Shown here one piece after another: positions 13,670-57,831 of a DNA stretch of 64,000 bases. The notes under the pieces are model-generated. The model was not told where the DNA came from and did not search any database. It saw nothing but the letters and a program-made list of their open reading frames with translations. The DNA comes from a virus. The stretch is taken from positions 23,460 to 87,459 of IMG/VR virus record IMGVR_UViG_3300015360_000029. The stretch is one strand, 5' to 3'. Numbering within the stretch: the first letter of the stretch is position 1; each line of letters starts with the position of its first letter. The position numbers were made by a program, and so were the translations under genes.

Positions 13670-14038
13670 TTATGAAGAGCGATCCATAGCATTCTCGAGC
13701 TTAGCAATTCCGCTCATAAGCACTTCCATTTCTTTTTCAAGAACTTTCAAGTCATCGTCAGCCCGACTATCATATTGATCCCCAGACCGTGATCTTTGTG
13801 AATGATATTGATTTTTCCGTTCTACATCAATCCGTTGTTGAAGCTCTTCTTTTTTAGACAGTGCTTGATCGATCTTTGTTTGTAAAGAAGATTTAAGCAT
13901 GTTCTCACCGTCTTCAACCAGACCAGTAACTTCACGTGTCTTCGCAACGAAGTACTCGTGCATCGTAACAGCAGCTTGCTCTTGACGATCGTTGATGATG
14001 TCTTGAAGCATTGCCTTCAGTGTTTCTTTATTGCTCAT
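13670..14038 (-). CDS. paralogous prohead-core-like protein, copy 1
   Basis: A 122-aa protein whose first 45 residues (LKAMLQDIINDRQEQAAVTM, then HEYFVAKTREVTGLVE) are almost identical to the proteins at 41776-42264 and 32143-32328. The rest is a charged coiled coil (KKEELQQRIDVERK...). The third copy lies inside the capsid cluster, which suggests a prohead-core or internal role for the family. ATG follows TAGGAG and a perfect late box at 14062. Function otherwise unknown. Confidence 0.7.
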   Translation of the reverse strand: MSNKETLKAMLQDIINDRQEQAAVTMHEYFVAKTREVTGLVEDGENMLKSSLQTKIDQALSKKEELQQRIDVERKNQYHSQRSRSGDQYDSRADDDLKVLEKEMEVLMSGIAKLENAMDRSS

Positions 14039-16674: not shown

Positions 16675-18162
16675 TCACTTTCTGATACCGAGCTTCTTCA
16701 GAATGTCATCTTCCCATAATGTTCCTGAGATATTTACATCTTGAAGCGTTATTCCTAGACGCTTCAGGATCAAACGGAATTCAGCTTTGTGCCTGTCACT
16801 AGATTTCTTGATTCCAAGTTCAGAGAACGCTCGAAACAGCCCGCTAAGCAACTTACTTTGAAACCAGTCTTTTGCATATCGTTGTCGAGTTGAGTTACTT
16901 GTAATTCTGCCTGCTTTGGCATCGGCCATCCAAACATTCAATTCTTTGGCTATATCTTCTTGATCACCGAACTCGAGGATGTCTGCAAGTGATCGAGAAT
17001 CTAAGTCAGTATTCTCATCTGCAGCTTCGACCTTTCCAAGAATCTTCGTGACTTTCTTCAAGTATTCATTTCGTTCTGCAGCTGGATCGATCGCGATTTC
17101 TAGAGCAAGAACGAATCGCAGAATAGTATCATAGATCAAATCGTACTTCGTGTGGTATTCAGCATTCCCGGCAATTCGGAATTCAAGATATCCACTCTTT
17201 ATCTTCTCAATGTGCACAGACGAATACTTAGCTGTTGAAAGAGCTGAGCGAGCGAGTTTCACCATCGCATCAGCTTCCTTTGGAAGCTTTCCAATGCCAG
17301 TAAGAGAAGTGACGATCGCATCGGTCTGCGGCTTCGTAAATGTGTTCGAAAGACGATCAAATTGTTTCAGAACATATCTATCACCCATGAACAATACGAG
17401 CTTCAACAGATCAGCATTCTCAATCCCAGGCATACTGATGTTTATGTGCAAGCCAGTGGTGATGTTCGTTTCAACATTTTGCCGAACCATCCAGCTAAAC
17501 ATTGATTTCAAATCTTGAAGTGCTTTCATCAAAGTCTGCGGCGGCGAGATAATTTCTGCACCAACCCCTACGGCACCTGCAGTAATTGATCTGTCAGGAA
17601 CTACAAGCCAGTCACCTCTATCGAAGTGTTCTTTAGATTCGCGCCAGGCTATCGTGACATTTTGCTCAAGATGATCTGACAAATCGTCCTCTATGTTCGA
17701 GAATGTTCCCTTTTGCATCTCTTCGATATCCATGTCGGCTAGACCGCCGATGTAGATTCTAGCCGATGATTGCCCAGTATCAGCTTCCCAACCGTATGTT
17801 GGGATGAAACCATTGGCTTTCACGAAATTGTACACAGATTTATATTCGTCAGAGATGAAGTTCTCCCATTCGATTTCATCATCTTCCGATTTCGTTTGAA
17901 CCCAATTGTCGTATTCTTTGGTAATTGTCTTTTTCTCAACTTTGTCAATTTCGAAATAATCAAATAATTCATTGAAGTCTGTGATTTTGTTCAATGACGT
18001 CCATTCGCGATTCACTTCTCCATTCGCAAGAAGTTCGGACTTTTCAGAAATGACGCACTCGAATTCGAACCCAATTTTTGCATCGCTATGCCGCTCCGCT
18101 GCTTTTGCGAATTCAGCACGGTTCATCGCCTTCTCAGCAAGGAAGTTTTTGAATGTAATCAT
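16675..18162 (-). CDS. putative head-cargo amidoligase-like protein
   Basis: A 495-aa protein beginning MITFKNFLAEKA, a capsid-targeting-like start with L-A-E. After it, IGFEFEC (about 30-36), PDRSI near 190, VGAEIISPP near 205 and TGLHINIS near 237 match the motif order of the putative amidoligase family (carboxylate-amine ligases: G-x-E-x-E, D-x-S, E-x-x-S-P, H-x-H/N). Such enzymes use ATP to form amide bonds. The C-terminal 150 residues are helical with no recognised domain. ATGA overlap places it downstream of gp15. Confidence 0.65.
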   Translation of the reverse strand: MITFKNFLAEKAMNRAEFAKAAERHSDAKIGFEFECVISEKSELLANGEVNREWTSLNKITDFNELFDYFEIDKVEKKTITKEYDNWVQTKSEDDEIEWENFISDEYKSVYNFVKANGFIPTYGWEADTGQSSARIYIGGLADMDIEEMQKGTFSNIEDDLSDHLEQNVTIAWRESKEHFDRGDWLVVPDRSITAGAVGVGAEIISPPQTLMKALQDLKSMFSWMVRQNVETNITTGLHINISMPGIENADLLKLVLFMGDRYVLKQFDRLSNTFTKPQTDAIVTSLTGIGKLPKEADAMVKLARSALSTAKYSSVHIEKIKSGYLEFRIAGNAEYHTKYDLIYDTILRFVLALEIAIDPAAERNEYLKKVTKILGKVEAADENTDLDSRSLADILEFGDQEDIAKELNVWMADAKAGRITSNSTRQRYAKDWFQSKLLSGLFRAFSELGIKKSSDRHKAEFRLILKRLGITLQDVNISGTLWEDDILKKLGIRK

Positions 18163-29736: not shown

Positions 29737-31041
29737 TCAGCTGAACGTGACGTTCTTCACGAGGATACGTGAGTAGTAATCGGCTGAGTTACCAAGGGAA
29801 GTACCGACGTTCGTGAACGTAGCCTTGCCGTAACGGGTCATCAGCGACACTGCTGGCATGAACGTGTTTGCGTCCATGACGATGCCAGTGCTCATCAGCG
29901 GGATGTATGGGCAGTAGAAGTACCCTGAGTCGAGCTCAGATGCACCACCCTTGTAACCGATCAAGATGTCTTCGCCGACGTCGCCTGAGGCGTTGACGAT
30001 GCCAGCACCTGAGCCTGTCAGTGAGAACGCGTCATTCAGGCCCCAGTTATATGAGTACACTTTCATTTGACCGTTCATGGTACCAACGAGCTTGTTGCCT
30101 GTTGGATCTGAGAACGAACCAGATACAGCCGGTGCGAACACGGACTTTGCAGCAGATTGCAGGATCGAAGTGATCAGGTGACCACCAACGAGCCAGTTAC
30201 CAGGTCCACGACGTGTCTTGGCACCAATTTCATTGGCCATCTTGTTCACGAGGATACCCAAGTGAGCGTAACGGTCGCCGAGGTAGTTCGGTGCGAAGCC
30301 AGCTGGTGGAGCAGCAAAGTCGAATGTCGAAACAGTCGAAGCCAGTCCGAGCAAGTCGGTCAGGATTTCGTTGTCGATTTCGTGAGCGATTTGTGCCGAC
30401 AGAGCAGCTGTCAGTTCAGACTCGAGGTCCAGACCGTGTTGGCTGTTCAGGTCTTGAGCAGCTTCCATTGTCCAACGAGCTTGCAACTTGCGTGAGCCGG
30501 CCGAGATCGTTTGCTTCAGGACTGACAGACGCATTGCGCGGCCACCGAAGCCTTCAGCGTCAGCTGTTGTTGCAGCGAAACCGTTCGAAGTCGTAGCAGT
30601 CAGAGCTGGCGGATAGCCAGTTGTGCCAACGTTCGAGGATGAATAGAAACGCTTCATCTTCGATGGCGATGCGCCATATTGGCCGAATGCTTCATCACCA
30701 GCGGCGATGTCATTGCCAGCAACGACCGTTGCGCCTGTTGCATCAGCTGCTTCAGAGAAAGCAAAACGCAGCGAGTACACCAGACCGACTGGGCCTGACA
30801 TTGGCTGAACACCAACGAGATCTGACGAGATCGTACCTGGAAGGATACGACGGATCATCGGGATCGTGATCTTCTGGAAGTTCGAGATTGCCGAAGCATC
30901 CATCCCGAGAGCGGATTGGGCGGTTTCCATCAGATGCTGCTTCTGGTTTTCCAGAAGGGTAGACATCACGGATTTCTTGGAACCTTGGAGGCCTTCAAGC
31001 AGGGCGTCTTTGGTTTCTTGCCAGTTTTCAATCAATTGCAT
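29737..31041 (-). CDS. 23: major capsid protein gp23
   Basis: A 434-aa protein (T4 gp23 is 521 aa). After a charged N-terminus come IRRILPGTISSDLVGVQPMS and G-P-V-G-L-V-Y-S-L-R-F, equivalent to T4 R-R-A-I-P-N-L-I-A-F-D-I-C-G-V-Q-P-M. T4 gp23 loses its N-terminal 65 residues to gp21; the start here (LIENWQETKDALLEG...) has candidate L-x-E sites. ATG follows AGGAG. It is preceded by scaffold and protease as in T4. Confidence 0.95.
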   Translation of the reverse strand: MQLIENWQETKDALLEGLQGSKKSVMSTLLENQKQHLMETAQSALGMDASAISNFQKITIPMIRRILPGTISSDLVGVQPMSGPVGLVYSLRFAFSEAADATGATVVAGNDIAAGDEAFGQYGASPSKMKRFYSSSNVGTTGYPPALTATTSNGFAATTADAEGFGGRAMRLSVLKQTISAGSRKLQARWTMEAAQDLNSQHGLDLESELTAALSAQIAHEIDNEILTDLLGLASTVSTFDFAAPPAGFAPNYLGDRYAHLGILVNKMANEIGAKTRRGPGNWLVGGHLITSILQSAAKSVFAPAVSGSFSDPTGNKLVGTMNGQMKVYSYNWGLNDAFSLTGSGAGIVNASGDVGEDILIGYKGGASELDSGYFYCPYIPLMSTGIVMDANTFMPAVSLMTRYGKATFTNVGTSLGNSADYYSRILVKNVTFS

Positions 31042-33042: not shown

Positions 33043-33651
33043 TTACTTTCGAAACTTGAGCGATTCAAGGAACGTCTTGATCTCTTTGGCGAAGTGCTTC
33101 TGTGCCTTCGGATCATGAACCATTGCTTCAGCCAGAGTCAGAATCTTCTTCGAGCCCATGGCTTCTTGAACGACGTTCGGGTACGCTTCAGGTGCCGATG
33201 GCTGGTACACGATGTCAACTGTGACGAAGCTGAAGTCCGAAACCGAACCGCCTTCATTCACGTTCCCAGTCCCGCGGGACGAGACACCGAGACGAACGCC
33301 ACCTTCAATCAAACCCTTGGCGATGTTCCCTGAAGGTGTATTGAGAAGTTTCATCTTGCCCAGAGCGTTCGCACCATCCATTCGAACTTCTGTGATCGCA
33401 TGCGAAACGTTCGCAAGGTTGATCGACAGAACATCAGGGTGATTGAGTTCGCCGAGGATGTAATGACCTTCGGTGATTCGTTTCGATGCCGTTTCGACTG
33501 CCTTTGAGATCTCGGCGAGCGGATACTTCCGACCATTGCCATTGACGAGGTCAGCTTGCATCATGATGCCAGACAAGTACAGATCGTTCCCGCGCTTCAT
33601 CTCAGTCAGCATTGCTGCAACTGGTGACAGGTCTTCGGAGAGTAGTTTCAT
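33043..33651 (-). CDS. 21: prohead protease gp21
   Basis: A 202-aa protein (T4 gp21 is 212 aa). It has NGNGRKYPLAEI, GELNHPD with candidate catalytic H71, and GVSSRGTGN with candidate nucleophile S124/S125, the pattern of the T4 prohead serine protease. In T4 this enzyme cuts core, capsid and internal proteins after L/I-x-E; many such sites occur in this window. The N-terminus (KLLSEDLSPV) has its own L-S-E site. ATGA couples it to a 26-aa ORF. Confidence 0.93.
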   Translation of the reverse strand: MKLLSEDLSPVAAMLTEMKRGNDLYLSGIMMQADLVNGNGRKYPLAEISKAVETASKRITEGHYILGELNHPDVLSINLANVSHAITEVRMDGANALGKMKLLNTPSGNIAKGLIEGGVRLGVSSRGTGNVNEGGSVSDFSFVTVDIVYQPSAPEAYPNVVQEAMGSKKILTLAEAMVHDPKAQKHFAKEIKTFLESLKFRK

Positions 33652-33757: not shown

Positions 33758-35437
33758 TCAAACAGCGGGAGGAGGCTCAACTCTAGCACCGGTTGCAGGC
33801 TCTTCTGCTGGTTCTTCAGGTGCTGCGCTGAAGAAATCACCAGGTGCAGGAAGCTCACTGCCAGCGCTAAAGTCTTCTTCGCTACCAGGGTCTCCACCAA
33901 TTTCAGCTTCGGCAGCGCTGCTTTCAACTTTCTGAGCTTCACGGTTCTCGTACACGGCTGGGTCATAGATTTGTTGCAATTCTGAGATGTTCGATGTCCC
34001 CGAGATCATACGCTCCTCTTTGAGCATCACTTCGTTCATCTGGATCTCGTCATCGGTCAGACCGAGGTAACGCTTCAGAATGAATCGGCGGCTCAAGTAC
34101 TTAGTACCTTCAATGTTGTTGAATGAACCGATCAGATCTGCGTCAAGAGCAGCTTGACGGTACAAAGCGAAGTTCGCTGGATCAGGAAGTTTGATCTTAA
34201 AAATTTCGTCGTCGATCTTCAGACCAACAACTTTCAAGTACACCTTGAATTCTTGATCAATGATTTCTTCGATACGATCTTGAAGGCGCATCACAAAATT
34301 CGCGAATCGCAATTCTTCAATGTATGCAATTCCGACCTTACCGTCATTCGTTGCAGCTCCTGCCTGTCCTTCGGCCCCAGTTCCCATGTACGATGTTGGG
34401 ATTCGAAGACCGCGGAACACTTTGTTCTGAAAGTACGCGAGCAAATTTGTACCGAAATCTTCAGTACCACCAGGCAACGTTTCAACACGTGACCCACGTC
34501 CTGATGATGTTACAGGAAAAAACAGATCTTCTTGAATCGACGTCGGATCGTATGCACCGTCAACCGTATCCTTGCCACCAGCTGATGTTGGCGATCGTTT
34601 CTGACGAATTTCATTCTTGATCTGCTCAAGGTATTGTTTCACTCGTTGTGGCGGCAAGTTTCCTGTGTCAACGTAGAACACACGACGTTCTGGGGCACGA
34701 ACAATTCTGTAAATGATAACTGCGTCTTCAATCATCGCAAGCTGACGATACACCCTATAAATCGGTTGCAGTACAGAAGCGCCGAACGGGGCAGAATATC
34801 CCATATCATCGGACATCGTGATGTGAATCATTGCCGCCGCTGGAATAATCTGTAGCTCTTCGTTCTTAGGTGAATACGGGTTCTGAACGCCTGTGTTCGC
34901 CTTCTTCACATGATAGCTGATCTTATCGCCGAGTTCATTGATCTCAATCCCGTGCACAAGCGATGGATCAACGTATTTCCATTTCTTCGTATCGGAAGTC
35001 TTTTGAAAGAAGCAATCGCCGTATTTGATCAAACAACGAGCGATGCTGAATAATCGTTTGTTGAAATCTTGAATTTCTGCCCATTGTCGAAGAGCTTGTC
35101 GAAGAGTAACTGATGTCGAATCGCTGATGTCTTGATTGTCTTCTTTCTGGTATTCAATTATGAACGGAAGATTTGTTTTGCTTTCTTTGCCAGACATTTC
35201 TTCTGCAATGATGTCAAGTGATCGTGAGATGTCAATGTCAGTGTCCATAGCATCGTACTGTTTGTACGACTGTGAGCGCGAGCCAGGTCCTCGCAAGACT
35301 TGCGAGTACCATTGGATCGACGACAACGAAGAGACATCTGTCTTTCGCGGGTCATACGCATCGGTTGCAAGCGAAGTGTACATCTGCTTCCGCGAAGCAG
35401 GTGTAATGATTCGCCAGTAGTTTGAAAATTGTGACAC
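33758..35437 (-). CDS. 20: portal protein gp20
   Basis: A 559-aa protein (T4 gp20 is 524 aa). It contains D-T-D-I-D-I-S-R-S-L-D-I-I-A-E-E-M, APERRVFYVDTGNLPPQR, V-E-T-L-P-G-G and GLRIPTSYMG, typical of T4-type portals. It forms the dodecameric DNA entry vertex and starts prohead assembly. GTG at 35437 is used because no closer ATG exists and TAGGGAA lies upstream. The C-terminal 60 residues are Ala/Pro/Glu-rich and probably disordered. Confidence 0.93.
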   Translation of the reverse strand: MSQFSNYWRIITPASRKQMYTSLATDAYDPRKTDVSSLSSIQWYSQVLRGPGSRSQSYKQYDAMDTDIDISRSLDIIAEEMSGKESKTNLPFIIEYQKEDNQDISDSTSVTLRQALRQWAEIQDFNKRLFSIARCLIKYGDCFFQKTSDTKKWKYVDPSLVHGIEINELGDKISYHVKKANTGVQNPYSPKNEELQIIPAAAMIHITMSDDMGYSAPFGASVLQPIYRVYRQLAMIEDAVIIYRIVRAPERRVFYVDTGNLPPQRVKQYLEQIKNEIRQKRSPTSAGGKDTVDGAYDPTSIQEDLFFPVTSSGRGSRVETLPGGTEDFGTNLLAYFQNKVFRGLRIPTSYMGTGAEGQAGAATNDGKVGIAYIEELRFANFVMRLQDRIEEIIDQEFKVYLKVVGLKIDDEIFKIKLPDPANFALYRQAALDADLIGSFNNIEGTKYLSRRFILKRYLGLTDDEIQMNEVMLKEERMISGTSNISELQQIYDPAVYENREAQKVESSAAEAEIGGDPGSEEDFSAGSELPAPGDFFSAAPEEPAEEPATGARVEPPPAV

Positions 35438-41775: not shown

Positions 41776-42264
41776 ATGTCACATCTTCTCAAATCGATGC
41801 TTCAAGACATCATCAATGATCGTCACGAGCAAGCTGCTGTTACGATGCACGAGTACTTCGTTGCGAAGACACGTGAAGTTACTGGTCTTGTTGAAGCTGA
41901 ACTATCCGAAGACGAAGTCGAAGACATTCTTGAATCGGCTGAAGATGAAGAACTTGACGAAGCACTTCGAGCTGGATTTGCAGGAGCAAGAAATTCAAGC
42001 GGCGAAAGAGAGATCGCATTGCCTGTTGGCACTGCTGAGCGTCAAAAACTTGCTAAACAAATCAAAGACAACCGTTCTGACAACAGAGATCCGAACTCCC
42101 GCGGTGCAGCAAATGATGCACAAAAAATGGAGCGTGAACCAGGAGAATCCGCTGGTGACTTCATGAAGCGAAAAGCTGCACTTTTGGCGAAGCGACATGG
42201 TGCAGCATCAGGAATGCAACGAGATTCTGGCGGCATCAGAGCAGATCTACGTCAGCATCCTTGA
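41776..42264 (+). CDS. paralogous prohead-core-like protein, copy 3
   Basis: A 162-aa protein. The first 45 residues (LLKSMLQDIINDRHEQAAVT...) are nearly identical in protein and DNA to 13670-14038. A very acidic stretch (ELSEDEVEDILESAEDEELD) follows, then a basic, Gln/Arg-rich, probably disordered tail. The acidic block resembles T4 core protein gp67 in composition only. It ends at the inverted copy of the terminator found beside its paralogue. Confidence 0.65.
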   Translation: MSHLLKSMLQDIINDRHEQAAVTMHEYFVAKTREVTGLVEAELSEDEVEDILESAEDEELDEALRAGFAGARNSSGEREIALPVGTAERQKLAKQIKDNRSDNRDPNSRGAANDAQKMEREPGESAGDFMKRKAALLAKRHGAASGMQRDSGGIRADLRQHP

Positions 42265-46036: not shown

Positions 46037-47422
46037 ATGCCATTTTCAGTTAAAAGCCTTCTTAATGAATCCAAGATCTCGCTTGAGAAAGCTGCGACTG
46101 ATAAGTTCGGGTCTGTGGTTGAAGACTTTACAAAGAATGCGATTGGTTCAATATTTCCGTCGAGTTCACAATCGAAGCCGGCCTCGGCATACGATGGATC
46201 GTGGTACGCAACTTCGTATGCAGCACACCTTGCCGGTGCGACAAGTTTCAGACCAAAGCTCAAATTTCTTTTCAAAGTTCAATTTATCTTCACAGAAGAA
46301 GCTAAGAGGATGTATCCTAAAGCACTCGGAAATACGGCACTTTCGAATCAATTCGTATTCATGATAAAGACTGTTGATCGGCCGAAAGTCGATTTTGAGT
46401 ACGAAGAAGATGTGAACATGTACAACTTCAGGACAAAAGTCTTGAAGAAGATTCGACATCGCGATCTTACCATATCATTCATGGATGACAGCGGAAATAG
46501 AGTATTTGAATTCTTTCGGTCATTGATGATGGTTCACTCCCCGATTACACGAACGCAAATGGATCGTGACAATACATTGAAGAACCCATCAACCGGCCTT
46601 CAAAAGCTCTCGACAAGCTCTGGAATGTCATTCGCAGGGAATCAAACTGATAGCGCGCACCGCGCCGTCGTGAACTCATCATTTGGAAATTCTATTGAAG
46701 CTATTCGAGTTCAACAAATTTTCGTTGATTCATCGGAATCTCTTGATCGCGCGACGAAGATGGTGTCATTCGATTTCATCAATCCGCGTATTGTCTCATT
46801 TGATCTTGACGAACTTAGCCATGAAGCAAATGACGTGAATCTGCTTACGATGGTATTCGACTATGATTGGATGGAAATGGTCGATGTCGGCGTACTTGGC
46901 ACAGCACAAACGCAATATGGTTCGGATGTTCCGGTGCTCCCGCCAGCAAAGAATATCACACAGTACGCACCATCAGACATCACACCGAACAAGCCAAACG
47001 GCGTTTCAGAGAGCGCAGCAGGAAACGGAGCTGGACCACCTGGATTCTTTGGTGCTCTTGCAAATTCAGCAGCAAGTATCCTTGGACGAGGTGCTTCTAA
47101 GCTTACATCTGATTTGATTGGCAGATCAGTACGAACTATTGCTGGAAACGGTAGATTCGCAACAGCACTTGGCGGCATTGTTTCGAGCAACCTTTCAGGC
47201 CCTATTGGCGGAATCGTTTCAGGTGCTGCCAGGGAACAACTTTCGGGTATTGCCGGAACTGCGAGCAACATACTGAGTGGCACTAATGCACGTGCATTAG
47301 CACGTGCTGTTGGCGATGCTTCAACGGCAGGATTCGATGAAGCAAAATCTATTGTGTCATCTTCTTCGGCTTCAGCTGCTTCGAATCCTGCGATTGACAA
47401 TCGACCAAGAGGCGGAACATAA
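46037..47422 (+). CDS. 54: baseplate tube-initiator protein gp54-like
   Basis: A 461-aa protein. Residues about 70-165 have a tube-like domain: LKFLFKVQFIF, D-R-P-K-V-D-F-E-Y-E-E-D-V-N-M-Y-N-F-R-T-K-V, then I-S-F-M-D-D. T4 gp54 (320 aa) is a gp19 relative that nucleates tube polymerisation. The C-terminal 140 residues are Gly/Ala/Ser-rich, hydrophobic and repetitive, absent from T4 gp54. Position after gp19 fits. The start VKSLLNESK has an N-terminal L-N-E site of unclear meaning. Confidence 0.6.
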   Translation: MPFSVKSLLNESKISLEKAATDKFGSVVEDFTKNAIGSIFPSSSQSKPASAYDGSWYATSYAAHLAGATSFRPKLKFLFKVQFIFTEEAKRMYPKALGNTALSNQFVFMIKTVDRPKVDFEYEEDVNMYNFRTKVLKKIRHRDLTISFMDDSGNRVFEFFRSLMMVHSPITRTQMDRDNTLKNPSTGLQKLSTSSGMSFAGNQTDSAHRAVVNSSFGNSIEAIRVQQIFVDSSESLDRATKMVSFDFINPRIVSFDLDELSHEANDVNLLTMVFDYDWMEMVDVGVLGTAQTQYGSDVPVLPPAKNITQYAPSDITPNKPNGVSESAAGNGAGPPGFFGALANSAASILGRGASKLTSDLIGRSVRTIAGNGRFATALGGIVSSNLSGPIGGIVSGAAREQLSGIAGTASNILSGTNARALARAVGDASTAGFDEAKSIVSSSSASAASNPAIDNRPRGGT

Positions 47423-47877
47423 TGGCTGCGGCTTCAGGTCGATTCGTTCCAAAGAATCCGGCGAAGTATGTTGGGAGGAGCGCTCGTCAAATAATGTTCC
47501 GATCTTCTTGGGAACTCGCATTCATGAAATGGCTTGACACGAACAATGCTGTGTTGCGCTGGGGCTCAGAAGAACTGGCAATTCCTTATGTTCATCCTGT
47601 TGATCAGCGCGTCCATAGATACTTTCCTGACATGGTGATCATGTATCTTGACACAGCTGGCCAAATTCAAAAAGAAATCATTGAAATCAAGCCTTACAAA
47701 GAAAGTGTTGCTACGCCGCGAATGACTGAACGTGATGCGGCGGCCCTCCAAGTCAATCAAGCAAAATGGGAGTACGCAGCTGACTGGGCAACTAGGAACG
47801 GCGCGAAGTTCAGAGTTTTGACAGAGCGCACAATGTTTAAGCAGAAAACAAAGAAAGCAATTGGGAGCGCAGTATGA
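47422..47877 (+). CDS. 4: head completion protein gp4, nuclease fold
   Basis: A 151-aa protein (T4 gp4 is 150 aa). RSSWELAFMKWLD, WGSEELAIPY, HRYFPDMV and EIIEIKPYK give the TnsA/PD-(D/E)xK-like set E31, D70, E88, K90. gp4 joins filled heads to tails and may trim DNA. TAATG with the upstream gene and ATGA with the next gene. Confidence 0.9.
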   Translation: MAAASGRFVPKNPAKYVGRSARQIMFRSSWELAFMKWLDTNNAVLRWGSEELAIPYVHPVDQRVHRYFPDMVIMYLDTAGQIQKEIIEIKPYKESVATPRMTERDAAALQVNQAKWEYAADWATRNGAKFRVLTERTMFKQKTKKAIGSAV

Positions 47878-48344
47878 AACCAAATGATCTTTTGAAAACT
47901 AAAATTACGAATCCATTGGATGAACTGTTCAACACACTTCCTAATGATCTCGAAGAAGATGGAGATTACATCCCGATGTCAGAAGGCACACTTGCGTCCC
48001 TTGGACCAGCCGAGCTAGTCGCAGTCGAGAAAGACGAAGAAGACATCGAGATTGATCGGAAGGTAGATGAAGTGTACGGTGCTGCGATCGATGCGTTCAA
48101 TAACCAAACAGCGTACATGGAAGTTATTGAACCTCGTTATGCGGCTAGAAATGCCGAGGTCGCTGCGAACTACTTGAATATCGCGCTAAATGCTGCTTCA
48201 GTTCGCGCGAAAGTGAAGGGCGATCGGAAGAAGAACGCAGCGTTCGTTCCATTCGGCAATAACAAGACGAATGGTGCCGTCGTTGCTTCTCGCGAAGACA
48301 TTATGAAAATGATCGCAGTTGATGCAGAAATGAAAAGAGGATGA
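47874..48344 (+). CDS. 16: probable terminase small subunit gp16-like
   Basis: A 156-aa protein (T4 gp16 is 164 aa). Acidic N-terminus, then a long helical centre (IEIDRKVDEVYGAAIDAF... to LNIALNAASVRAKVKGDRKK) and a C-terminal V-A-S-R-E-D-I-M-K-M-I like T4 F-M-G-S-P-T-E-L-M-D. gp16 recognises DNA for packaging and stimulates gp17. It is separated from gp17 by 8 kb of cargo-type genes, unlike T4. Assignment rests on layout and length. Confidence 0.5.
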   Translation: MKPNDLLKTKITNPLDELFNTLPNDLEEDGDYIPMSEGTLASLGPAELVAVEKDEEDIEIDRKVDEVYGAAIDAFNNQTAYMEVIEPRYAARNAEVAANYLNIALNAASVRAKVKGDRKKNAAFVPFGNNKTNGAVVASREDIMKMIAVDAEMKRG

Positions 48345-48733
48345 TTTTGAAGATTTCTGAGCTGATCGAAGATGTGAACAAGAAAGTGTTTATGCAAGGG
48401 TTCGAACAAGAGCGTGGAATCCTTGACGGTAAATACATTCTTGTAGCAAAGCACGGTTACCTTCCGTACACAACACCACAAACTCGTGTAAGTAATCAGT
48501 TCAGAATCGAAGTCAAAACAGCTCGCGGTGTTCAAGTTGGCTGGGTGAACTTCGAGAACATCAACGATGATCTTGAGGCACTTGACCTTTCAGTTTCTGA
48601 GAAGCATCGTCGAAAAGGCATTGCTTCGGAGATGTACAAGTTCGCTCGTGATCTCGGGAACACAATCAAACCATCATCGAAGCAGACCGCAATGGGTAAG
48701 AAGTTCTGGTCGGATAAGGACCACTCGAAATGA
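48341..48733 (+). CDS. GNAT-like acetyltransferase, putative head cargo
   Basis: A 130-aa protein. Residues 80-100, ALDLSVSEKHRRKGIASEMY, match GNAT motif A (V-x-x-x-x-R-R-x-G-I-A) for acetyl-CoA binding. The start MILKISELIEDV resembles the K-x-x-E-L-F-E targeting signature; a TTG two codons later would give MKISELIEDV. It would acetylate an amine or protein. The domain is short for a complete GNAT. ATGA overlaps with both neighbours. Confidence 0.6.
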   Translation: MILKISELIEDVNKKVFMQGFEQERGILDGKYILVAKHGYLPYTTPQTRVSNQFRIEVKTARGVQVGWVNFENINDDLEALDLSVSEKHRRKGIASEMYKFARDLGNTIKPSSKQTAMGKKFWSDKDHSK

Positions 48734-49869
48734 TTACATTCAAACAGTACTTGGCTGAAGGTTCAAGCGGCCCAGACAAATGGGAGAAGTATTTCTCTTC
48801 GGGTGACGTCGAGACACTCGCAAAGAAGGATGCTGACTTGTTCGATGTGTTCGACAAGAAAGTAAAGAAAACTGTTAAAAAAGGCGACAAGATCAAGGTC
48901 CTCTTTTCCGACAAGTACGTGACAAAGGTTAAAGTTCGAATCGGCGACGGTGAGTACTTGATGAAGTTCACAGATGTGGACAAGCCGTTCAAGGTGGAGC
49001 GCGTTGTTGGCATTGACTTAAAGCCAGACAAGCTCGGACTGTTCGGGCCGAAGTTCATGTCAAAATACGGCGCCGAAGTGAAGAGACTTCTTGATTCGCA
49101 CACTGACATCCCGACAGAACGTGCCGATTATCTGAAGGCTCTTGTTGATCTTGCCGAGTCTCCAGATGATAATGATCTTGAAGATGCTGCCAAAGAACTG
49201 TACATCTCGACAGGCACGAAGGATGATCAAGCGTTCAAGAACACGATCAACAATGACTTCATGGAAGTTCTCGGTCCGTTCTTCGTTGTCAATGAGAAGC
49301 CTGAGTACAAGGCAGGCGGTGTTCAATTCCCAGTGCTCGGAAACCAGCCGCTGTACGACTTCACGATGAAAGCGAAGCAAGGCGCAAACGAGAACATCGT
49401 TAGCTTCAGTTCAAAGCGCTCTGGTGGGAACACGAACACGCTGAAAGTGTCCGCAGTATTAAATGCGTTGAAAGATGCTGATCCGAAGTTCAAGAAAAAG
49501 TTCTCGAGAGAGATCGAGTTAATGAAGCTGATCGACGAGAACTCCATCAAAGCAACCCCCGGCAAAATCAATCAATGGCTCGCGAACACATTTTCATCGT
49601 ACGAAAAGTTACCTGATGCAACTGACATTGCATCTAATGTTAATCTCGAGCGCTTAGTTACGAAGTGGATCAATGAAAACTCAGGCATGACATTTATTCC
49701 TGTGGTTCAGCAAGCAGTTCCAGACCTGTGGTATGTGAAGTCGCGATTGGCTTCTGATGGCACGCTCAAAGTGGAACCTTTGAAGTCAGGTCAAGAAATC
49801 ACCAAAGCGATCTTTAGGTCGAAGTCATCTTCAGGTCACATGGCCGACAAGCTTGGTTTCGCTCTGTAA
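48730..49869 (+). CDS. putative head-cargo protein, unknown
   Basis: A 379-aa protein beginning MITFKQYLAEGSS, a clear targeting signature with L-A-E-G. The first 110 residues are Lys/Asp-rich (KKTVKKGDKIKVLF, V-T-K-V-K-V-R-I-G-D-G). The central PLYDFTMKAKQGANENIVSF then S-S-K-R-S-G-G-N-T-N recalls the D...S-x-K core of some restriction-type nucleases, but this is weak. First of a run of cargo-type genes on the plus strand. Confidence 0.65.
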   Translation: MITFKQYLAEGSSGPDKWEKYFSSGDVETLAKKDADLFDVFDKKVKKTVKKGDKIKVLFSDKYVTKVKVRIGDGEYLMKFTDVDKPFKVERVVGIDLKPDKLGLFGPKFMSKYGAEVKRLLDSHTDIPTERADYLKALVDLAESPDDNDLEDAAKELYISTGTKDDQAFKNTINNDFMEVLGPFFVVNEKPEYKAGGVQFPVLGNQPLYDFTMKAKQGANENIVSFSSKRSGGNTNTLKVSAVLNALKDADPKFKKKFSREIELMKLIDENSIKATPGKINQWLANTFSSYEKLPDATDIASNVNLERLVTKWINENSGMTFIPVVQQAVPDLWYVKSRLASDGTLKVEPLKSGQEITKAIFRSKSSSGHMADKLGFAL

Positions 49870-49914: not shown

Positions 49915-52092
49915 ATGACACTTCTCAAAGAACTGTTCGCGCTAACCGAACTTAAGAATCACATGGGCGAAACTGAGTATAGCTCATACAAGTCTTGGAA
50001 AGCTGCTGTGAAGAAAGTTGTTGGCGACTCACCTGTGACATTCATTGGTGACTCTAGTATGGACGAAGCTCATGTCAAGGATGACAATGGCAAGATGCGT
50101 GCCGTTGGCGAATGGGATGGCTACGTTGGCGTCGTCTACAAGAAGCCAGCTGGCATGAAGGTTGATGAAAGTCGCCTCCGCTCGGCGAAAGAACGAGATG
50201 CTCACGATCTTGGTTTCAAAAATGCTTCAAAGGGTACGCCGACTGAACTCAAAGACACGTGCCCGTACACAAGCGGGACACCTGAGTACCGCGCGTATTA
50301 CCGCGGTGTTGAAGATCACGCTATGGCGAATCCAAAGAAGGCGAAGTCATTGAAAGAAGGCCGTGGCTGTCCTTCATGGTTCAAGAACGGTGCGAAAGTG
50401 AAGCTTCGTTCAGAGTACGCTGACAAGGACCCTCAAGAAGTGTTCACGCTTTCGAACGTTGATGACGAACAAGGCGATGGCAAGATTTCGGATGACGACG
50501 GCAAAGGCTGGACAGTCAAGCACTTCAAGGTGTACCCAGCGAACCTGAAGACTGAACCTGTCGATGAGACGCTGACGACGGCTAAGGCTGAAAGTCATGG
50601 CGGCGAATGGCTCGTGAAGTTCATACACTGCCCTTCGGCTACAGACAAGCGTCAGCTTTCGATTCGTTCAATCAAGGCGATCACGTCCGGACAAGCTGTC
50701 GCTCTCGCAAAGGCGAAGCTCCCGAAGGAACTTCAAGACTGCGCTGAAGTCGAGTCGGTCAAGATGATGTCTGAGCCTGTCAAAGAAACACTGGGTGAAG
50801 ACGCCGATTACGCAAAGCAGCTCGTGCGCGGCGAGAAGGCTGGACCTGGCGTTATGAACAAGCTTAATCAATGGTTCACAAAGCTTGTTGTCGATAAGGA
50901 TGCAAATCGTTTCCTTCCGGCAGACAAGGCACTGGATCAGCTCGCACGAGCTGGATTCAGCAAGGATCAAATTCAGAAGATTCGCGATGCAGCTGCCGTT
51001 GCTTGTAACACTGCAATCGAACGGATGCAATCGAAGCACGGAGATCGTGTTCCAGCAAAGTACATCTCGAAGATGGGATCAAGCTTCGGCGTGTTTGATC
51101 TGTATCTCAATGTCTCCGAAGAGATTCACAAAGAGTTCGCAGCGTTGATGCGCAAGCTGTTTGATGCGAAGCTCGACAAGATGAAGGACGATTTGCTGTT
51201 GCCAAAAGCCGCTATTGGGAAGTCGCAAGAAGCGTCGATGAAGGGTGATTGGGGAACTGCCAAAAAGCATTTTGATACGTACGATAAGGGTACAAAGCTC
51301 AAAGAGGATGATGCTCTGCAAAGTCTCGGGAAGATTCTTTCTGGAAAGGCGACTGAAGCACCTGCCAAAGACGAAGTCACCGATTCAACAGATGCTTCAA
51401 TCTCCACAGCACCGGTTGAAGAACCAGCACTTGAAGGTCCAGTGTTCAAGGCCGGTGACAAGGTGAAGCCAAAGTCAGGTCCGCACGCTGGTGAAATTCA
51501 TACAGTTCAGAAAGTCCTTGCGAACGGCTCGCTCGACATCGTTCCGGATAACGTCACCAAAGTGAAGTACGCAAAGGGTGGAGCGAATGCACGCCCAGAA
51601 CAACTTGAACTTTTTGAAGGTTTTAAGTTTCTTGGTTTGTTCAAGAAAGGTTCATTGCTCGCTCAATTCTCGCTGATGGAAACTAAATGGACACCAAAGA
51701 AAGACGATGTGTCATTTCACAATAGCTCTGAAGAATGGAAGAGCGGGTACACGGATTACATGAACGGTCAGAACTGGAGCTTTCCTACAGCTCGATTGAA
51801 ATCTGCCGAAGGTAAGAAGTACCGCAGCGGTTGGGACGAAGCTGAAGCAGCAAAGAAGCGCATGAAAGAACAGGGCAAGGTCACTGAAGCTCGTTCGAAC
51901 GATGACTTCATGCCATTGTCGTACGGTGCCAAGAAGGGTCACACGATCGAAGCGTACGGTCGCAAGGGCATGAATAGTTTGAAGTGGCGCAAGATGTTCG
52001 TGTCTCAGAAAAAGCTTGATGATTGGGTCGAAGCTAATGACGCAAAAGTTGAAGGCATGCGCAAGCTCGACGACAACGAAAAGGTGAAGTGA
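49915..52092 (+). CDS. large multi-module putative head-cargo protein with RMF-like segment
   Basis: A 725-aa protein. Start MTLLKELFALTE resembles the KELF targeting form. Residues 91-137 (AKERDAHDLGFKNASKGT..., TCPYTSG..., YRAYYRGVEDHAM) follow the ribosome modulation factor layout (E-R-x-A-H-x-x-G-Y...C-P-Y...R-x-x-W-x-x-G). A weaker second copy lies near 601-646 (GYTDYMNGQNWSFPTARL...). Two KOW-like beta segments (about 155-205 and 520-555) and a helical middle lie between. Internal L-E-G and L-F-E-G sites could be cut by gp21. Function unknown. Confidence 0.65.
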   Translation: MTLLKELFALTELKNHMGETEYSSYKSWKAAVKKVVGDSPVTFIGDSSMDEAHVKDDNGKMRAVGEWDGYVGVVYKKPAGMKVDESRLRSAKERDAHDLGFKNASKGTPTELKDTCPYTSGTPEYRAYYRGVEDHAMANPKKAKSLKEGRGCPSWFKNGAKVKLRSEYADKDPQEVFTLSNVDDEQGDGKISDDDGKGWTVKHFKVYPANLKTEPVDETLTTAKAESHGGEWLVKFIHCPSATDKRQLSIRSIKAITSGQAVALAKAKLPKELQDCAEVESVKMMSEPVKETLGEDADYAKQLVRGEKAGPGVMNKLNQWFTKLVVDKDANRFLPADKALDQLARAGFSKDQIQKIRDAAAVACNTAIERMQSKHGDRVPAKYISKMGSSFGVFDLYLNVSEEIHKEFAALMRKLFDAKLDKMKDDLLLPKAAIGKSQEASMKGDWGTAKKHFDTYDKGTKLKEDDALQSLGKILSGKATEAPAKDEVTDSTDASISTAPVEEPALEGPVFKAGDKVKPKSGPHAGEIHTVQKVLANGSLDIVPDNVTKVKYAKGGANARPEQLELFEGFKFLGLFKKGSLLAQFSLMETKWTPKKDDVSFHNSSEEWKSGYTDYMNGQNWSFPTARLKSAEGKKYRSGWDEAEAAKKRMKEQGKVTEARSNDDFMPLSYGAKKGHTIEAYGRKGMNSLKWRKMFVSQKKLDDWVEANDAKVEGMRKLDDNEKVK

Positions 52093-52522: not shown

Positions 52523-53284
52523 ATGATTTCATTTAAGCAATTCCTTGAAGAGGCTAAGAAGAAGCCTAAAGAAGACAACTGGCACTCTGGGCCAGAAGCG
52601 TATGCTTCAGGGTACTCGAACCTTCGCGACATTCAAGCAAACCTTAATGTCGAGATGGATGGGCGAAAGAAGTTCCAGTTGTTCGTTCCGAAGCGGCGCG
52701 ATCCACAAGTCGAGATCGATCGTGCTCGTGATCGTCGGTATCGTGAAGCGAAACGTGAAGTCGACGCTGAGCTGAAAGAAGAGAAAGCACCAGTTCTAAC
52801 TGGGTTCAACGAAGCTCCTCCCGGTGACAACAAGCCTGGCAGGTCTTTCTGGACATCAACAGCGATTGATCGAAACGATGGTACGTACACATCCGATTGG
52901 TATCTGTACGTCAAGAACAATCATCGTGGCTGGCAAACTGATTACGGGTACTTGTTCGAAGTTCAACCTGACGCTCGAGTATTCAACATCAGCTACGCAG
53001 AACAATACTATCAATGGGCGATGGATCAGAAGCGAATGAAGCTTCCAGAGCGTGAATACTATCGCCCGTACTCACGCGACGATATGCGTTCAAGGTTCCC
53101 TTGGGATGAGCTCAGTCGGCACTTCGATGCTGTTCATTGTTCGCATCCGGACCGCGGGCACGGATACGGCGACGATTTTACATACGGCTGGGATGTTGAA
53201 TCTACAGCGTGGTTCAACACTGCTGCTCTTAAATACAAAGGTGCCGTGAAACTGTTTCGCGGCGGAGATCCAGATGATGAATAA
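52523..53284 (+). CDS. putative head-cargo protein, possible ADP-ribosyltransferase-like
   Basis: A 253-aa protein beginning MISFKQFLEEAKKK. After a basic linker the C-terminal 160 residues show R-S-F-W-T-S-T-A-I, GYLFEVQPDARVFNISYAEQ, H-F-D-A-V-H-C-S-H and Y-G-W-D-V-E-S-T-A-W-F. Short S-T, V-x-x-I and late W-D-V-E elements recall ADP-ribosyltransferase or RES toxins, and T4 packages the ART Alt, but I cannot confirm the fold. Overlaps the next gene by 8-11 bp. Confidence 0.6.
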   Translation: MISFKQFLEEAKKKPKEDNWHSGPEAYASGYSNLRDIQANLNVEMDGRKKFQLFVPKRRDPQVEIDRARDRRYREAKREVDAELKEEKAPVLTGFNEAPPGDNKPGRSFWTSTAIDRNDGTYTSDWYLYVKNNHRGWQTDYGYLFEVQPDARVFNISYAEQYYQWAMDQKRMKLPEREYYRPYSRDDMRSRFPWDELSRHFDAVHCSHPDRGHGYGDDFTYGWDVESTAWFNTAALKYKGAVKLFRGGDPDDE

Positions 53285-54161
53285 GCTGACGTTCAAACAA
53301 TTCCTCGAAGATGCTCGTGGCGCTCATGGCGAATACACGAATGACATTGGTGAGAAGACAATGGTTCATGCGATCATCAATGCTTTGTTTGGCGGGCGGA
53401 AAACTGACGAGAACTATGATCGCGTGTATAGTTTCCTTGAAGAGAACGAGCAGTTCTACGATGCCTTCTACGATGCATTCGCTGAGAAGGCAAACATGAA
53501 GGCGGCGATTTCATACGCTGAACGAAACAAACTTTCAATACCGGCGACAGCGCTCTCTCCAGAAGCTTCGAAGAAAATACAGGAGTTCAAGATTCAATTG
53601 AAGCAAGAGTTCAATGATTGGGAGAACTTGAATGAAGACAAGGAACTCAAGGGCAAGACGAAATCAAGTAAGCGTGCCTATAAAGACTACACGAATTTCA
53701 AGGGTGTCAGTGCCGAAGATAAGAAAGAGCTGAAGAGCACGATGGATCGTGAACTCAGAAAGTTCAAGAAGTCTGACCATAAGGACCCGAAGTCGTACCC
53801 AAAAGATTGGCCAGCTGACAAGAAGTACAATGCGAAGCTGAAAGAAAAAGGTAAAGAACTTCCGAAGTCGAAGTACACAGATAAGTACAAGGCAATGTAC
53901 GGCGAAGTTCAGCTTTCAATCAATGATGAAATGTTATCTGAAGGTAATGTTGATGTGGCTTTGAAGAACAAAGCTGAGAAGACTGGTATTAAACAAAGCA
54001 CTCTTCGCGCTGTTTTGAATCGCGGTCTTGCTGCTTGGCGTCAACATCATCGTCCAGGTGTTGGACAGATTCAATGGGCAATGGGTCGTGTTAATAGCTT
54101 CATCACCGGTGGTGGCGCTCGCAAAGCCGACAAAGACCTGTGGGACAAAAGGAACGCATAA
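53277..54161 (+). CDS. putative head-cargo protein with DUF5824/DUF5872-type segments
   Basis: A 294-aa protein beginning MNKLTFKQFLEDARG, the signature with a three-residue prefix. The middle is Lys-rich (S-K-Y-T-D-K-Y-K-A-M-Y-G-E, pattern of small phage and large-virus domains). The C-terminal LKNKAEKTGIKQSTLRAVLN, then R-G-L-A-A-W-R-Q-H-H-R-P-G and R-V-N-S-F-I-T-G, matches what I know as DUF5824. Highly basic, so DNA contact inside the head is plausible. ATG at 53274 is an alternative start. Confidence 0.65.
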   Translation: MNKLTFKQFLEDARGAHGEYTNDIGEKTMVHAIINALFGGRKTDENYDRVYSFLEENEQFYDAFYDAFAEKANMKAAISYAERNKLSIPATALSPEASKKIQEFKIQLKQEFNDWENLNEDKELKGKTKSSKRAYKDYTNFKGVSAEDKKELKSTMDRELRKFKKSDHKDPKSYPKDWPADKKYNAKLKEKGKELPKSKYTDKYKAMYGEVQLSINDEMLSEGNVDVALKNKAEKTGIKQSTLRAVLNRGLAAWRQHHRPGVGQIQWAMGRVNSFITGGGARKADKDLWDKRNA

Positions 54162-55548: not shown

Positions 55549-56297
55549 TTCTTTCTACGCGCGCCCAAAAAATCTCAAATACTGAAGAACTTCGTCGTTG
55601 TGCTTTGGACCCGAAGTACTTCATGATGAAATACATTCTATCGGAAGTTTCGAGTGTTCAAGAGAAATTCATCGACGGAATCCTTGAATTCAAGCAGCTC
55701 ATCGTGAAACATCCTCGTCAAGGCGGATTCACAACTGCATCAATGGCATATCTTCTTTGGGAGATGATGTTCATGCCGAATCGAACATCGGTTGTTGTTC
55801 TTTCCACAGTTCAAATTGCGACAAATTTAACTGCAATCGTTCGGGTAATGCAACAAAAGCTTCCAAGCTGGCTGAGATCTGAAATTTTGTATGAGGGGCG
55901 AGATTTATTGAAATTCGAAAATGAATCAAAACTATCATTCGTAGCATGTTCAGAAAGATCTATGCATGGCGTCATGTTCGATACTCTATACATCGGAGAC
56001 ATGGCGTATGCTGATGAAGCTCATCTTCAAGGATTCTGGAAAAATGTTGCATCGCGCATTGATTCGCATACGAGAGTTTTGATTCATAGTACACCAAAAC
56101 CTGATGAAAATTTGTTCAAAACACTGTTTCAAAAAGCAGCTAAGGAACGCTCTATGCTTCAAACAATGAGCTTCGAGTACTGCGAGATGCCATACGCTTC
56201 GTTGCAGCATGAATCACAGACGATAAGCTACATCGGTTTTAGCGCTTTTAGAATTGAATTCATGGCACTATTCGAAAATGAAGAACCCACAGCTTAA
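55545..56297 (+). CDS. inactive terminase ATPase-domain paralogue
   Basis: A 250-aa protein that aligns by eye with the N-terminal ATPase half of the gp17 encoded just downstream: C-A-L-D-P-K-Y-F-M-M-K-Y with C-K-D-D-P-I-Y-F-M-R-N-Y; A-Y-L-L-W with M-Y-L-L-W; I-H-S-T-P-K with I-S-S-T-P-N. Walker A is HPRQGGFT where gp17 has QPRQCGKT, losing the Lys; Walker B LYIGDMAY replaces LYLDELAF. No nuclease domain. Likely a duplicated gp17 turned regulator, or a decaying copy. ATGA with the lipase gene. Confidence 0.7.
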   Translation: MILSTRAQKISNTEELRRCALDPKYFMMKYILSEVSSVQEKFIDGILEFKQLIVKHPRQGGFTTASMAYLLWEMMFMPNRTSVVVLSTVQIATNLTAIVRVMQQKLPSWLRSEILYEGRDLLKFENESKLSFVACSERSMHGVMFDTLYIGDMAYADEAHLQGFWKNVASRIDSHTRVLIHSTPKPDENLFKTLFQKAAKERSMLQTMSFEYCEMPYASLQHESQTISYIGFSAFRIEFMALFENEEPTA

Positions 56298-57831
56298 GAA
56301 GGCATTCGCCACGGATGAATATACTCCGTACATGATATCGGAGCTTCGGAAGTGCAAGGATGACCCGATTTATTTCATGCGGAATTACATTAAGATTCAG
56401 CATCCGACGAAGGGCACTATCAAGTTTAATCTATTTGAATACCAAGAACGGTTCGTGAAATGCATGCACGAAAATCGATTCGTTCTCACGCTTCAACCGC
56501 GACAGTGTGGAAAGACACTCACAGTCGCTATGTATCTTCTTTGGTTTTCATGCTTTACTGATGATGTTACAGTTCTGATTGCTTCTAAGAATCAAAGTCA
56601 CGCACTCGAGATCGCAGCTCGTGTTCGATTCGCGTATGAAGAATTGCCGAACTGGCTGAAGCCAGGATTGAAGTATTTCAACAGGCACAATGTCGAGCTT
56701 GATAACGGGTCACGCATTGTTTCGGAAGCAACAACCGAAAAGACAGGTCGAGGTCTCTCGATTTCGAAGCTGTATCTTGACGAGCTAGCTTTTATCTCGC
56801 CACGAATTCAAGAATTGATGTGGGCATCGCTCGCGCCAACTCTATCGACTGGTGGTTCAGCGATCATCTCAAGCACGCCGAACGGTGACACAGAACTGTT
56901 CGCTCAATTGTGGCGTCGCGCGATGTCAGGCCTTCAAGACGAGCTAGGGACGAATTTCGTTCCGTTTCAAGTTAATTGGCGCGAACATCCAGAACGTGAT
57001 GATAGGTATTGGGATACAATGGTGAACATGCTCGGTCTATTGAAGACTCGGCAAGAAGTCGGTGTCGAATTTCTTTCTTCTGATGCGATGTTAATTTCAT
57101 CAATGAAGCTTCAGCAAATCGCTGGGAAGATGGTTCATCATGAAGACATGGGATTCAAGTTCTGGGTTTCTGAAGAAGAGCTCGGCGGGGCCGGCAAGAC
57201 ATATCTTGTATCAATCGATCCTGCGACTGGGAATGGAAAAGACTTCAGCGTAATTGAAATCTTCGATTTCCCTCGGCTTCAGCAGATTGCTGAATGGCGT
57301 TCGAATGAAATCAACATCCCGCTGTTGTACGCGAAAGTAAAGTGGATTTTGAATAAACTCTCGGCTGTTGTGAATCGCGGCAGGGCCGAAGTGCTGTGGA
57401 CGTTCGAACGGAACGGGATCGGCGAAGCCATGTCTGCTCTGTACTTCAATGACGAAAATCAGCCAGAACACCCAGAACTTTATTGTGATGTTCCTGGAAA
57501 ACTCGGAGTGTATACGACTGGGAAAACGAAGATTCAAGCATGTCTTCAAACGAAGGGATTGATTGAAAAGACGAAGAACGGGTTCGATCTTGCTTCCGAA
57601 ACACTGATCTTCGAGCTGAAGAACTATGTAGCGAAAGGCGGATCATATGAAGCAAAGTCTGGTGCGACTGATGATTGCGTTTCAGCTTTACTCGGCATCG
57701 CACGCCTTATCAAGCGATTATCTGAGTACAATGATGATGCATTCAAGCAGGTGAACGAATACGTGAATCCTGAAGCTGAAGATACCGAAGATAGTTGGGG
57801 TGGCGAGCCTGTCCCGTTTGTGATAGTGTAA
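56278..57831 (+). CDS. 17: terminase large subunit gp17
   Basis: A 517-aa protein (T4 gp17 is 610 aa). Walker A QPRQCGKT (73-80), Walker B LYLDELAF, coupling motif ISSTP, then a RuvC/RNase H-like nuclease domain with SIDPATGNGKDFS, FERNGIGEA and TDDCVSALL supplying acidic metal ligands. It powers DNA packaging into the prohead and cuts the concatemer. ATG at 56278 (MKNPQLKK...) is preferred over a TTG at 56254; the gene overlaps its paralogue by 20 bp. Confidence 0.93.
   Translation: MKNPQLKKAFATDEYTPYMISELRKCKDDPIYFMRNYIKIQHPTKGTIKFNLFEYQERFVKCMHENRFVLTLQPRQCGKTLTVAMYLLWFSCFTDDVTVLIASKNQSHALEIAARVRFAYEELPNWLKPGLKYFNRHNVELDNGSRIVSEATTEKTGRGLSISKLYLDELAFISPRIQELMWASLAPTLSTGGSAIISSTPNGDTELFAQLWRRAMSGLQDELGTNFVPFQVNWREHPERDDRYWDTMVNMLGLLKTRQEVGVEFLSSDAMLISSMKLQQIAGKMVHHEDMGFKFWVSEEELGGAGKTYLVSIDPATGNGKDFSVIEIFDFPRLQQIAEWRSNEINIPLLYAKVKWILNKLSAVVNRGRAEVLWTFERNGIGEAMSALYFNDENQPEHPELYCDVPGKLGVYTTGKTKIQACLQTKGLIEKTKNGFDLASETLIFELKNYVAKGGSYEAKSGATDDCVSALLGIARLIKRLSEYNDDAFKQVNEYVNPEAEDTEDSWGGEPVPFVIV

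What the first reader, a model, noticed from the sequence alone, without database searches (positions are those of the whole stretch)
50185..50325. Ribosome-modulation-factor-like segment in a cargo-type protein
Residues 91-137 of the 725-aa protein follow the bacterial RMF order: E-R-x-A-H-x-x-G-(Y/F), G...C-P-Y, then R-x-x-(W/Y)-x-x-G-V-x-x-A-M. A weaker second copy lies near residues 601-646. RMF dimerises 70S ribosomes into inactive 100S. A head-delivered RMF-like protein could act on host ribosomes at once after infection.
Basis: partly seen in the sequence, partly recalled or inferred. Interest (0 to 1): 0.75.

Follow-up and report, generated by a model that had tools for sequence, protein, structure and literature searches.

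The report
RMF-like module in phage head cargo
A large phage protein that looks built to be packed inside the virus head and cut up there carries a roughly 60-residue piece that distantly resembles the bacterial ribosome-silencing factor RMF, but nothing yet shows that it acts on ribosomes.

Summary
The 725-aa ORF and the RMF-ordered motif are real and at the stated coordinates. Copy 1 (residues 86-148) is a plausible but distant RMF-like helix-loop-helix. It gets no Pfam RMF hit. A profile comparison with the RMF superfamily gives P about 8e-6, the best of 683 tiles of the window's proteins and above 1120 shuffles. The Cys-Pro-Tyr tripeptide carries much of that signal: with it held fixed, 2 of 700 shuffles do as well. 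A blind single-sequence AlphaFold model has E. coli RMF as its top PDB neighbour, but only at Z 5.4, next to decoys at 4.8. Copy 2 has no support.

The cargo reading is better supported. The phage encodes a T4-type prohead protease, capsid and portal. Neighbouring proteins start with capsid-targeting-like peptides ending L-x-E. The adjacent domain recurs in a phage PA5oct protein annotated as virion-structural by mass spectrometry. Predicted protease sites bracket the module.

Direct ribosome silencing is unproven. RMF residues R11 and R45 are replaced by acidic residues, and the P. aeruginosa RMF homologue does not act in hibernation. Verdict: a probable RMF-fold module in a head-packaged polyprotein, moderately interesting.

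The parts
49915..52092 (+). 725-aa multi-domain head-cargo candidate containing the finding
   Evidence: no Pfam/NCBIfam family
49915..49950 (+). residues 1-12 MTLLKELFALTE, capsid-targeting-like peptide ending in an L-x-E protease motif
   Evidence: T4 rule L/I-x-E and 10-aa CTS from PMC9026906
49951..50169 (+). residues 13-85, 'KNHMGETEY...GEWDG' domain, shared with cargo/core-like proteins of other phages and with PA5oct EST35_0203
50161..50169 (+). VDE|S, predicted prohead-protease site just upstream of the RMF-like module (residues 83-85)
   Evidence: inferred, V at P3 is looser than the T4 consensus
50170..50358 (+). RMF-like helix-loop-helix module, residues 86-148 (finding 50185-50325 lies inside)
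   Evidence: hhalign prob 83-86%; AF2 helices 91-106, 109-115, 123-138 at block pLDDT 69-83; VIA top hit E. coli RMF Z 5.4
50350..50358 (+). LKE|G, predicted prohead-protease site at the end of the RMF-like module (residues 146-148)
51436..51582 (+). residues 508-556, KOW-like stretch resembling ribosomal protein L24 (weak lead)
   Evidence: phmmer top four hits all L24, best E 0.23; no Pfam match
   Evidence: hhalign 14.3 = noise; model pLDDT 45
33043..33651 (-). T4-type head maturation (prohead) protease
   Evidence: phrog_207 E 6.7e-55
29737..31041 (-). major head protein
   Evidence: phrog_138 E 5e-85; 50% identity to Xanthomonas phage XacN1
31068..31964 (-). likely prohead core/scaffold, rich in h-x-E motifs (13 vs 6.8 expected)
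   Evidence: position between capsid and protease genes
33758..35437 (-). portal protein
   Evidence: phrog_213 E 1.1e-89
48730..49869 (+). neighbouring cargo candidate, N-terminus MITFKQYLAE|G
52523..53284 (+). neighbouring cargo candidate, N-terminus MISFKQFLEE|A
53274..54161 (+). neighbouring cargo candidate with DUF5824 C-terminus, N-terminus MMNKLTFKQFLED
16675..18162 (-). further cargo candidate, N-terminus MITFKNFLAE|K
47422..47877 (+). head closure protein, left boundary of the cargo cluster (same order in PA5oct)
   Evidence: phrog_218 E 7.1e-46
56254..57831 (+). terminase large subunit, right boundary of the cargo cluster (same order in PA5oct)
   Evidence: phrog_36964 E 2.3e-66

Best explanation
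The 725-aa protein is a head-packaged cargo polyprotein of a T4-type jumbo myovirus. Its N-terminal peptide directs it into the prohead core. The T4-type prohead protease then cuts it at h-x-E sites into small modules. One of these, residues 86-148, is a diverged RMF-like helix-loop-helix that is ejected with the DNA into the host. There it most likely works by binding a host RNA or protein partner. The ribosome is one candidate partner, but classical RMF-style 100S dimerisation is unlikely. Shown here: sequence, protease gene, targeting-like peptides, statistical and model resemblance to RMF. Inferred: packaging, cleavage, ejection, partner.
For: Cargo: T4-type protease, capsid and portal in the same window. 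Several neighbouring proteins start with a 10-aa peptide ending L-x-E, matching the T4 IPIII rule (PMC9026906). The adjacent domain occurs in PA5oct EST35_0203, annotated structural by ESI-MS/MS and lying between head closure and terminase as here. h-x-E sites are enriched in the 725-aa protein (12 vs 5.8 expected, P 0.0085). RMF fold: hhalign 26.6-26.7 against a next best of 18.4 in the window and a shuffle maximum of 16.9. Blind single-sequence AF2 model, then VIA rank 1 E. coli RMF (9iot_y, Z 5.4, 53 of 54 residues) and rank 5 V. parahaemolyticus RMF (2jrm, Z 4.5). A second set of core-like phage proteins, two of them with the same adjacent domain, carries an RMF-like unit (26.2 vs maximum 17.0 of 661 column shuffles), each copy preceded by V-x-E|(S/G/A). 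PA5oct also encodes a stand-alone RMF-like ORF, EST35_0072 (PF04957 E 1e-5, below cut-off; hhalign prob 95%).
Against: No Pfam RMF match at any tested E. CPY carries much of the profile score. Foldseek alone lists no RMF among its top 50. VIA Z 5.4 is close to unrelated C5a at 4.8, with rmsd 5 A. No close relatives of the segment itself were found in phage or viral collections. VDE is looser than the T4 L/I-x-E consensus. Nearer relatives by capsid (XacN1, RAS14) show no RMF-like unit in the genes next to the terminase.
Confidence: 0.5

Rival explanations
1. [quoted passage not shown]
For: R3 and K5, which contact 16S rRNA helix 28, correspond to R87 and R89, and G23 to G107 (PMC8778775). A KOW/L24-like stretch lies in the same protein.
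Against: R11 and R45 are replaced by D95 and E133. Net charge +2 vs +7. Core-family units are acidic (-3 to -5). The Pseudomonas RMF homologue BatR does not act in hibernation (PMC13411936).
Confidence: 0.17
2. Chance resemblance: a small helical linker with a CPY loop in a cargo or core protein, unrelated to RMF and without a binding role of that kind.
For: No family hit. CPY-fixed shuffles reach the score in 2 of 700. Single-sequence comparison to E. coli RMF is not above shuffles. Low-confidence model and modest Z.
Against: Best of all window tiles by a wide margin. RMF is the top structural neighbour of a model made without any RMF sequence. A similar unit recurs in other core-like proteins.
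Confidence: 0.33
3. Structural role only: the module is a core/scaffold piece used during head assembly (binding capsid, core or DNA) with no host target.
For: Related units sit in large acidic core-like proteins of other phages. The PA5oct relative is simply 'structural'.
Against: Capsid-targeting-like peptides and domain variety among neighbours (GNAT-like, DUF5824, KOW-like) look like delivered effectors.
Confidence: 0.35

Closest known systems
Ribosome modulation factor, PF04957 (E. coli RMF; PDB 6h4n, 9iot, 2jrm)
   Same: order A-H-x2-G-(Y/F)-x5-G, CPY, aromatic-x2-G; about 55-63 residues; two helices around a loop in the model; top VIA neighbour
   Different: below Pfam detection; 3-residue insertion before CPY; W44, R11 and R45 replaced; less basic; embedded in a 725-aa protein; host function unknown
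BatR (PA3049), Pseudomonas RMF homologue (PMC13411936)
   Same: RMF-family fold; example of an RMF relative with a partner other than the ribosome (SrkA)
   Different: true RMF-family cellular protein with a C-terminal helix; not phage-borne
T4 internal head proteins and Alt with capsid targeting sequence (PMC9026906)
   Same: short N-terminal peptide ending in L-x-E, T4-type prohead protease in the genome, cargo-like gene cluster
   Different: T4 cargo proteins lose short propeptides; here a multi-domain chain with many candidate sites
PA5oct EST35_0203 virion protein and EST35_0072 small ORF
   Same: EST35_0203 shares the adjacent GEWDG domain and gene position; EST35_0072 is a stand-alone RMF-like ORF
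   Different: in PA5oct the two are on separate genes and EST35_0203 shows no RMF-like unit
PHROG 10492 and 13106 (phage families of unknown function)
   Same: stand-alone phage families matched by E. coli RMF (E 1.9e-4 and 0.015)
   Different: not known to be fused to head cargo; the window segment itself does not match them

Membership tests
RMF (PF04957) | score above the Pfam gathering cut-off (27.9 bits) | tested here: not met
   no match for the full protein or segment; none in the virus record at E<=10
RMF (PF04957) | conserved skeleton G16, G23, C29-P30-Y31, W40, G43, W44 | tested here: inconclusive
   G100, G107, CPY116-118, Y128 (for W) and G131 kept; V132 replaces W44
RMF (PF04957) | ribosome-binding residues R3, K5, R11 | tested here: inconclusive
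   R87, R89, D95 by ungapped alignment from A12=A96; residue roles from PMC8778775
RMF (PF04957) | dimerisation residues G23 and R45 | tested here: not met
   G107 kept, R45 is E133 (PMC8778775)
RMF (PF04957) | two-helix fold with linker loop | tested here: inconclusive
   single-sequence model, block pLDDT 69-83 over about 91-140; VIA top hit 9iot_y Z 5.4, 2jrm Z 4.5, C5a 4.8
RMF (PF04957) | binds 30S and forms 100S dimers | not testable with these tools
   needs sedimentation or binding assays
T4-type head cargo (CTS-bearing internal proteins) | N-terminal targeting peptide of about 10 residues ending L/I-x-E | tested here: met
   MTLLKELFALTE|L here (12 residues); MITFKQYLAE|G, MISFKQFLEE|A and MITFKNFLAE|K in other window proteins
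T4-type head cargo (CTS-bearing internal proteins) | T4-type prohead protease encoded in the same genome | tested here: met
   33043-33651, phrog_207 E 6.7e-55
T4-type head cargo (CTS-bearing internal proteins) | protein present and cleaved in the virion | not testable with these tools
   only indirect: a PA5oct protein with the same domain is annotated ESI-MS/MS structural

The most novel reading that the evidence does not exclude
Jumbo phages deliver from the virion, together with their DNA, an RMF-fold factor that is cut out of a cargo polyprotein by the prohead protease and binds host ribosomes before any phage gene is expressed.
Probability: 0.15. Interest if true: 0.85.

Novelty: new variant of a known kind. 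Interest (0 to 1): 0.42.

Why it matters
If right, an RMF-like fold is used as a pre-made, head-delivered effector, and prohead proteases act not only as maturation enzymes but as processors of multi-domain cargo chains. That would give a direct test of how a phage could touch host translation at time zero. Even without ribosome action, the domain inventory points to a modular cargo class that recurs in environmental and jumbo T4-type phages.

Tried and rejected
Default Pfam, NCBIfam and PHROG scans of the protein and its pieces: no RMF. phmmer of the segment against PDB sequences: nothing relevant. tblastn of the segment and of copy 2 in phages, and viral-contig scans with either: no relatives. 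HMM built from the core-like family: does not find the window protein above noise, so the two RMF-like sets are linked only through RMF. Foldseek against PDB and viral models: no significant match, E 0.057 or worse. C-terminal model (585-725): pLDDT 45, neighbours meaningless. The hhalign result for an alignment that mixes the window segment with the core family (prob 95%) was not used as evidence, because the alignment was made with the resemblance in mind. A tile scan first seemed to miss the segment; the two tiles holding it had failed on a template file format and were rerun. The window is not PaBG-like overall: its capsid and terminase are closest to XacN1, RAS14/CM1 and PA5oct. Cargo-zone proteins of XacN1, RAS14 and PA5oct scanned the same way gave no RMF-like tile (maximum 13.9 of 231).

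Full report
Observation. The motif order is present: A96-H97-x2-G100-F101, G107, C116-P117-Y118, Y128-x2-G131-V132, A136-M137. Against E. coli RMF (sequence confirmed against PDB 6h4n and 4v8g) this keeps both glycines and CPY, replaces W40 by Tyr and W44 by Val, and has a 3-residue insertion before Cys.

Is it more than chance? Curated libraries say nothing: no Pfam, NCBIfam or PHROG RMF hit, and PF04957 finds nothing in the whole virus record at E<=10. I built an RMF-superfamily alignment from RMF relatives found with E. coli RMF and PF04957 across bacterial genomes. This set includes shorter forms of the pattern F..G..A...G....CPY.EGSED..AWL.A(W/Y)DEA, several of which pass the Pfam RMF cut-off. 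An unfiltered bona fide RMF HMM ranks the 725-aa ORF first in the window, but at 5.0 bits with noise at 4.8. Profile comparison is clearer. The segment scores 26.6-26.7 (prob 83-86%, P about 8e-6) whatever the exact borders, while the best other place among 683 tiles of window proteins scores 18.4 and the best of 1120 shuffles 16.9. Two caveats matter. With CPY held in place, 2 of 700 shuffles reach the score, so CPY carries much of the signal. Against E. coli RMF alone, the score is not above shuffles.

Structure. AlphaFold2 on residues 1-152 without any alignment gave helices at 91-106, 109-115 and 123-138 with block pLDDT of 69-83 over about 91-140, and low confidence over most of the rest. 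VIA-align against PDB chains placed E. coli RMF first (9iot_y, Z 5.4, 53 of 54 residues, model 83-142 on chain 2-54, rmsd 5.0) and V. parahaemolyticus RMF fifth (2jrm, Z 4.5); unrelated C5a anaphylatoxin scored 4.8. Foldseek itself listed no RMF in its top 50. The overall register agrees with the sequence alignment, but Z values of this size are weak evidence alone.

Second copy. Residues 601-646 score 14.3-14.4, i.e. noise, and the C-terminal region folded to pLDDT 45. The visible W-K-S-G-Y ... K-Y-R-S-G-W-D-E-A string is suggestive to the eye only.

Surroundings. The window is part of an 87-kb virus record. Its capsid protein and terminase are closest to Xanthomonas phage XacN1, Stenotrophomonas phages CM1/RAS14 and Pseudomonas phage PA5oct. 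It encodes a T4-type major head protein, portal and head maturation protease. Between head closure and terminase lies a run of proteins with similar N-termini: MITFKQYLAE|G, MTLLKELFALTE|L, MISFKQFLEE|A, MMNKLTFKQFLED; another, MITFKNFLAE|K, lies at 16675-18162. In T4 the 10-residue capsid targeting sequence ends at an L/I-x-E site cut by the prohead protease (PMC9026906). The 725-aa protein has 12 h-x-E sites against 5.8 expected (P 0.0085); two of them, VDE|S (83-85) and LKE|G (146-148), bracket the RMF-like segment and would release a 63-residue piece. With one site every 40-60 residues, bracketing by chance is possible, so this is supportive only.

Relatives. No close relative of the segment was found. 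The domain before it (residues 13-85, KNHMGETEY...GEWDG) recurs in 20 viral loci and in PA5oct-type phages, where EST35_0203 is annotated as a structural protein by ESI-MS/MS and sits between head closure and terminase. In most of the loci examined the domain starts directly after, or one residue after, an x-x-E motif that usually fits h-x-E. Two of the environmental proteins carry, after this domain, an RMF-like unit (L006, L007), and a further scan gave ten more proteins with that unit, each copy preceded by V-x-E|(S/G/A). This family also matches the RMF superfamily (26.2 against a maximum of 17.0 of 661 column shuffles). It is acidic, unlike RMF. PA5oct in addition encodes a free-standing RMF-like ORF, EST35_0072 (PF04957 E 1e-5, below the cut-off; hhalign prob 95%).

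Mechanism. The best reading is a head-packaged polyprotein, cut by the prohead protease into small modules that enter the host with the DNA, one of them an RMF-like helix-loop-helix that binds an RNA or protein partner. Packaging, cleavage, ejection and partner are inferred. The ribosome is possible: R3 and K5, which contact 16S rRNA helix 28 in RMF, correspond to R87 and R89, and G23 to G107. It is weakened because R11 and R45 are replaced by Asp and Glu (residue roles from PMC8778775), and because an RMF homologue in P. aeruginosa, BatR, is reported not to act in hibernation but to bind a kinase (PMC13411936).

Comparison and novelty. It is not a member of RMF by the tests available (cut-off and R45 not met), but it may well share its fold. 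A library search for papers naming RMF, phage and virion protein together returned none, and a broader one listed none on phage-encoded RMF among its top 15. I file it as a new variant of a known kind: an RMF-like unit embedded in T4-type head cargo. Rival confidences overlap the best explanation in part, because the structural-role and ribosome readings are special cases of the partner question.

Noticed in passing
window 51436-51582: Residues 508-556 (AGDKVKPKSGPHAGEIHTVQKVLANGSLDI...) look like a KOW/SH3-type stretch; the top four PDB sequence hits are all ribosomal protein L24, best E 0.23.
   Followed up: partly
L200 1701-1907 (PA5oct MK797984.1 23200-23406): PA5oct EST35_0072, annotated hypothetical protein in the terminal repeat region, is a stand-alone RMF-like protein (GVHAAKLG...DCPYTKNEPYERNEWIRGH; PF04957 E 1e-5, below cut-off).
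   Followed up: partly
L006, L007, L185-L194: Large acidic core-like phage proteins carry a conserved 'AAxxxGKxHALAKxxYxCxYxxxxEAxxYHEGxKEGLDECYG' unit, each copy preceded by V-x-E; no named family.
   Followed up: partly
L184 9001-9150: The GEWDG domain also occurs inside a protein annotated DarB-like antirestriction in Tunturiibacter phage Tunturi_5; DarB of P1 is a head-carried protein (from general knowledge).
   Followed up: no
window 13670-14038 (-) and 41776-42264 (+): The two ORFs share a near-identical N-terminal stretch (MLQDIINDR-EQAAVTMHEYFVAKTREVTGL), a possible gene duplication.
   Followed up: no
window 48341-48733: Small GNAT-acetyltransferase-like protein with a targeting-like N-terminus (MILKISELIEDV), so possibly an enzymatic cargo.
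   Followed up: no
PHROG 12708: E. coli RMF weakly matches a family named head maturation protease (E 0.063, profile 86-121), a possible further head-associated RMF-like unit.
   Followed up: no
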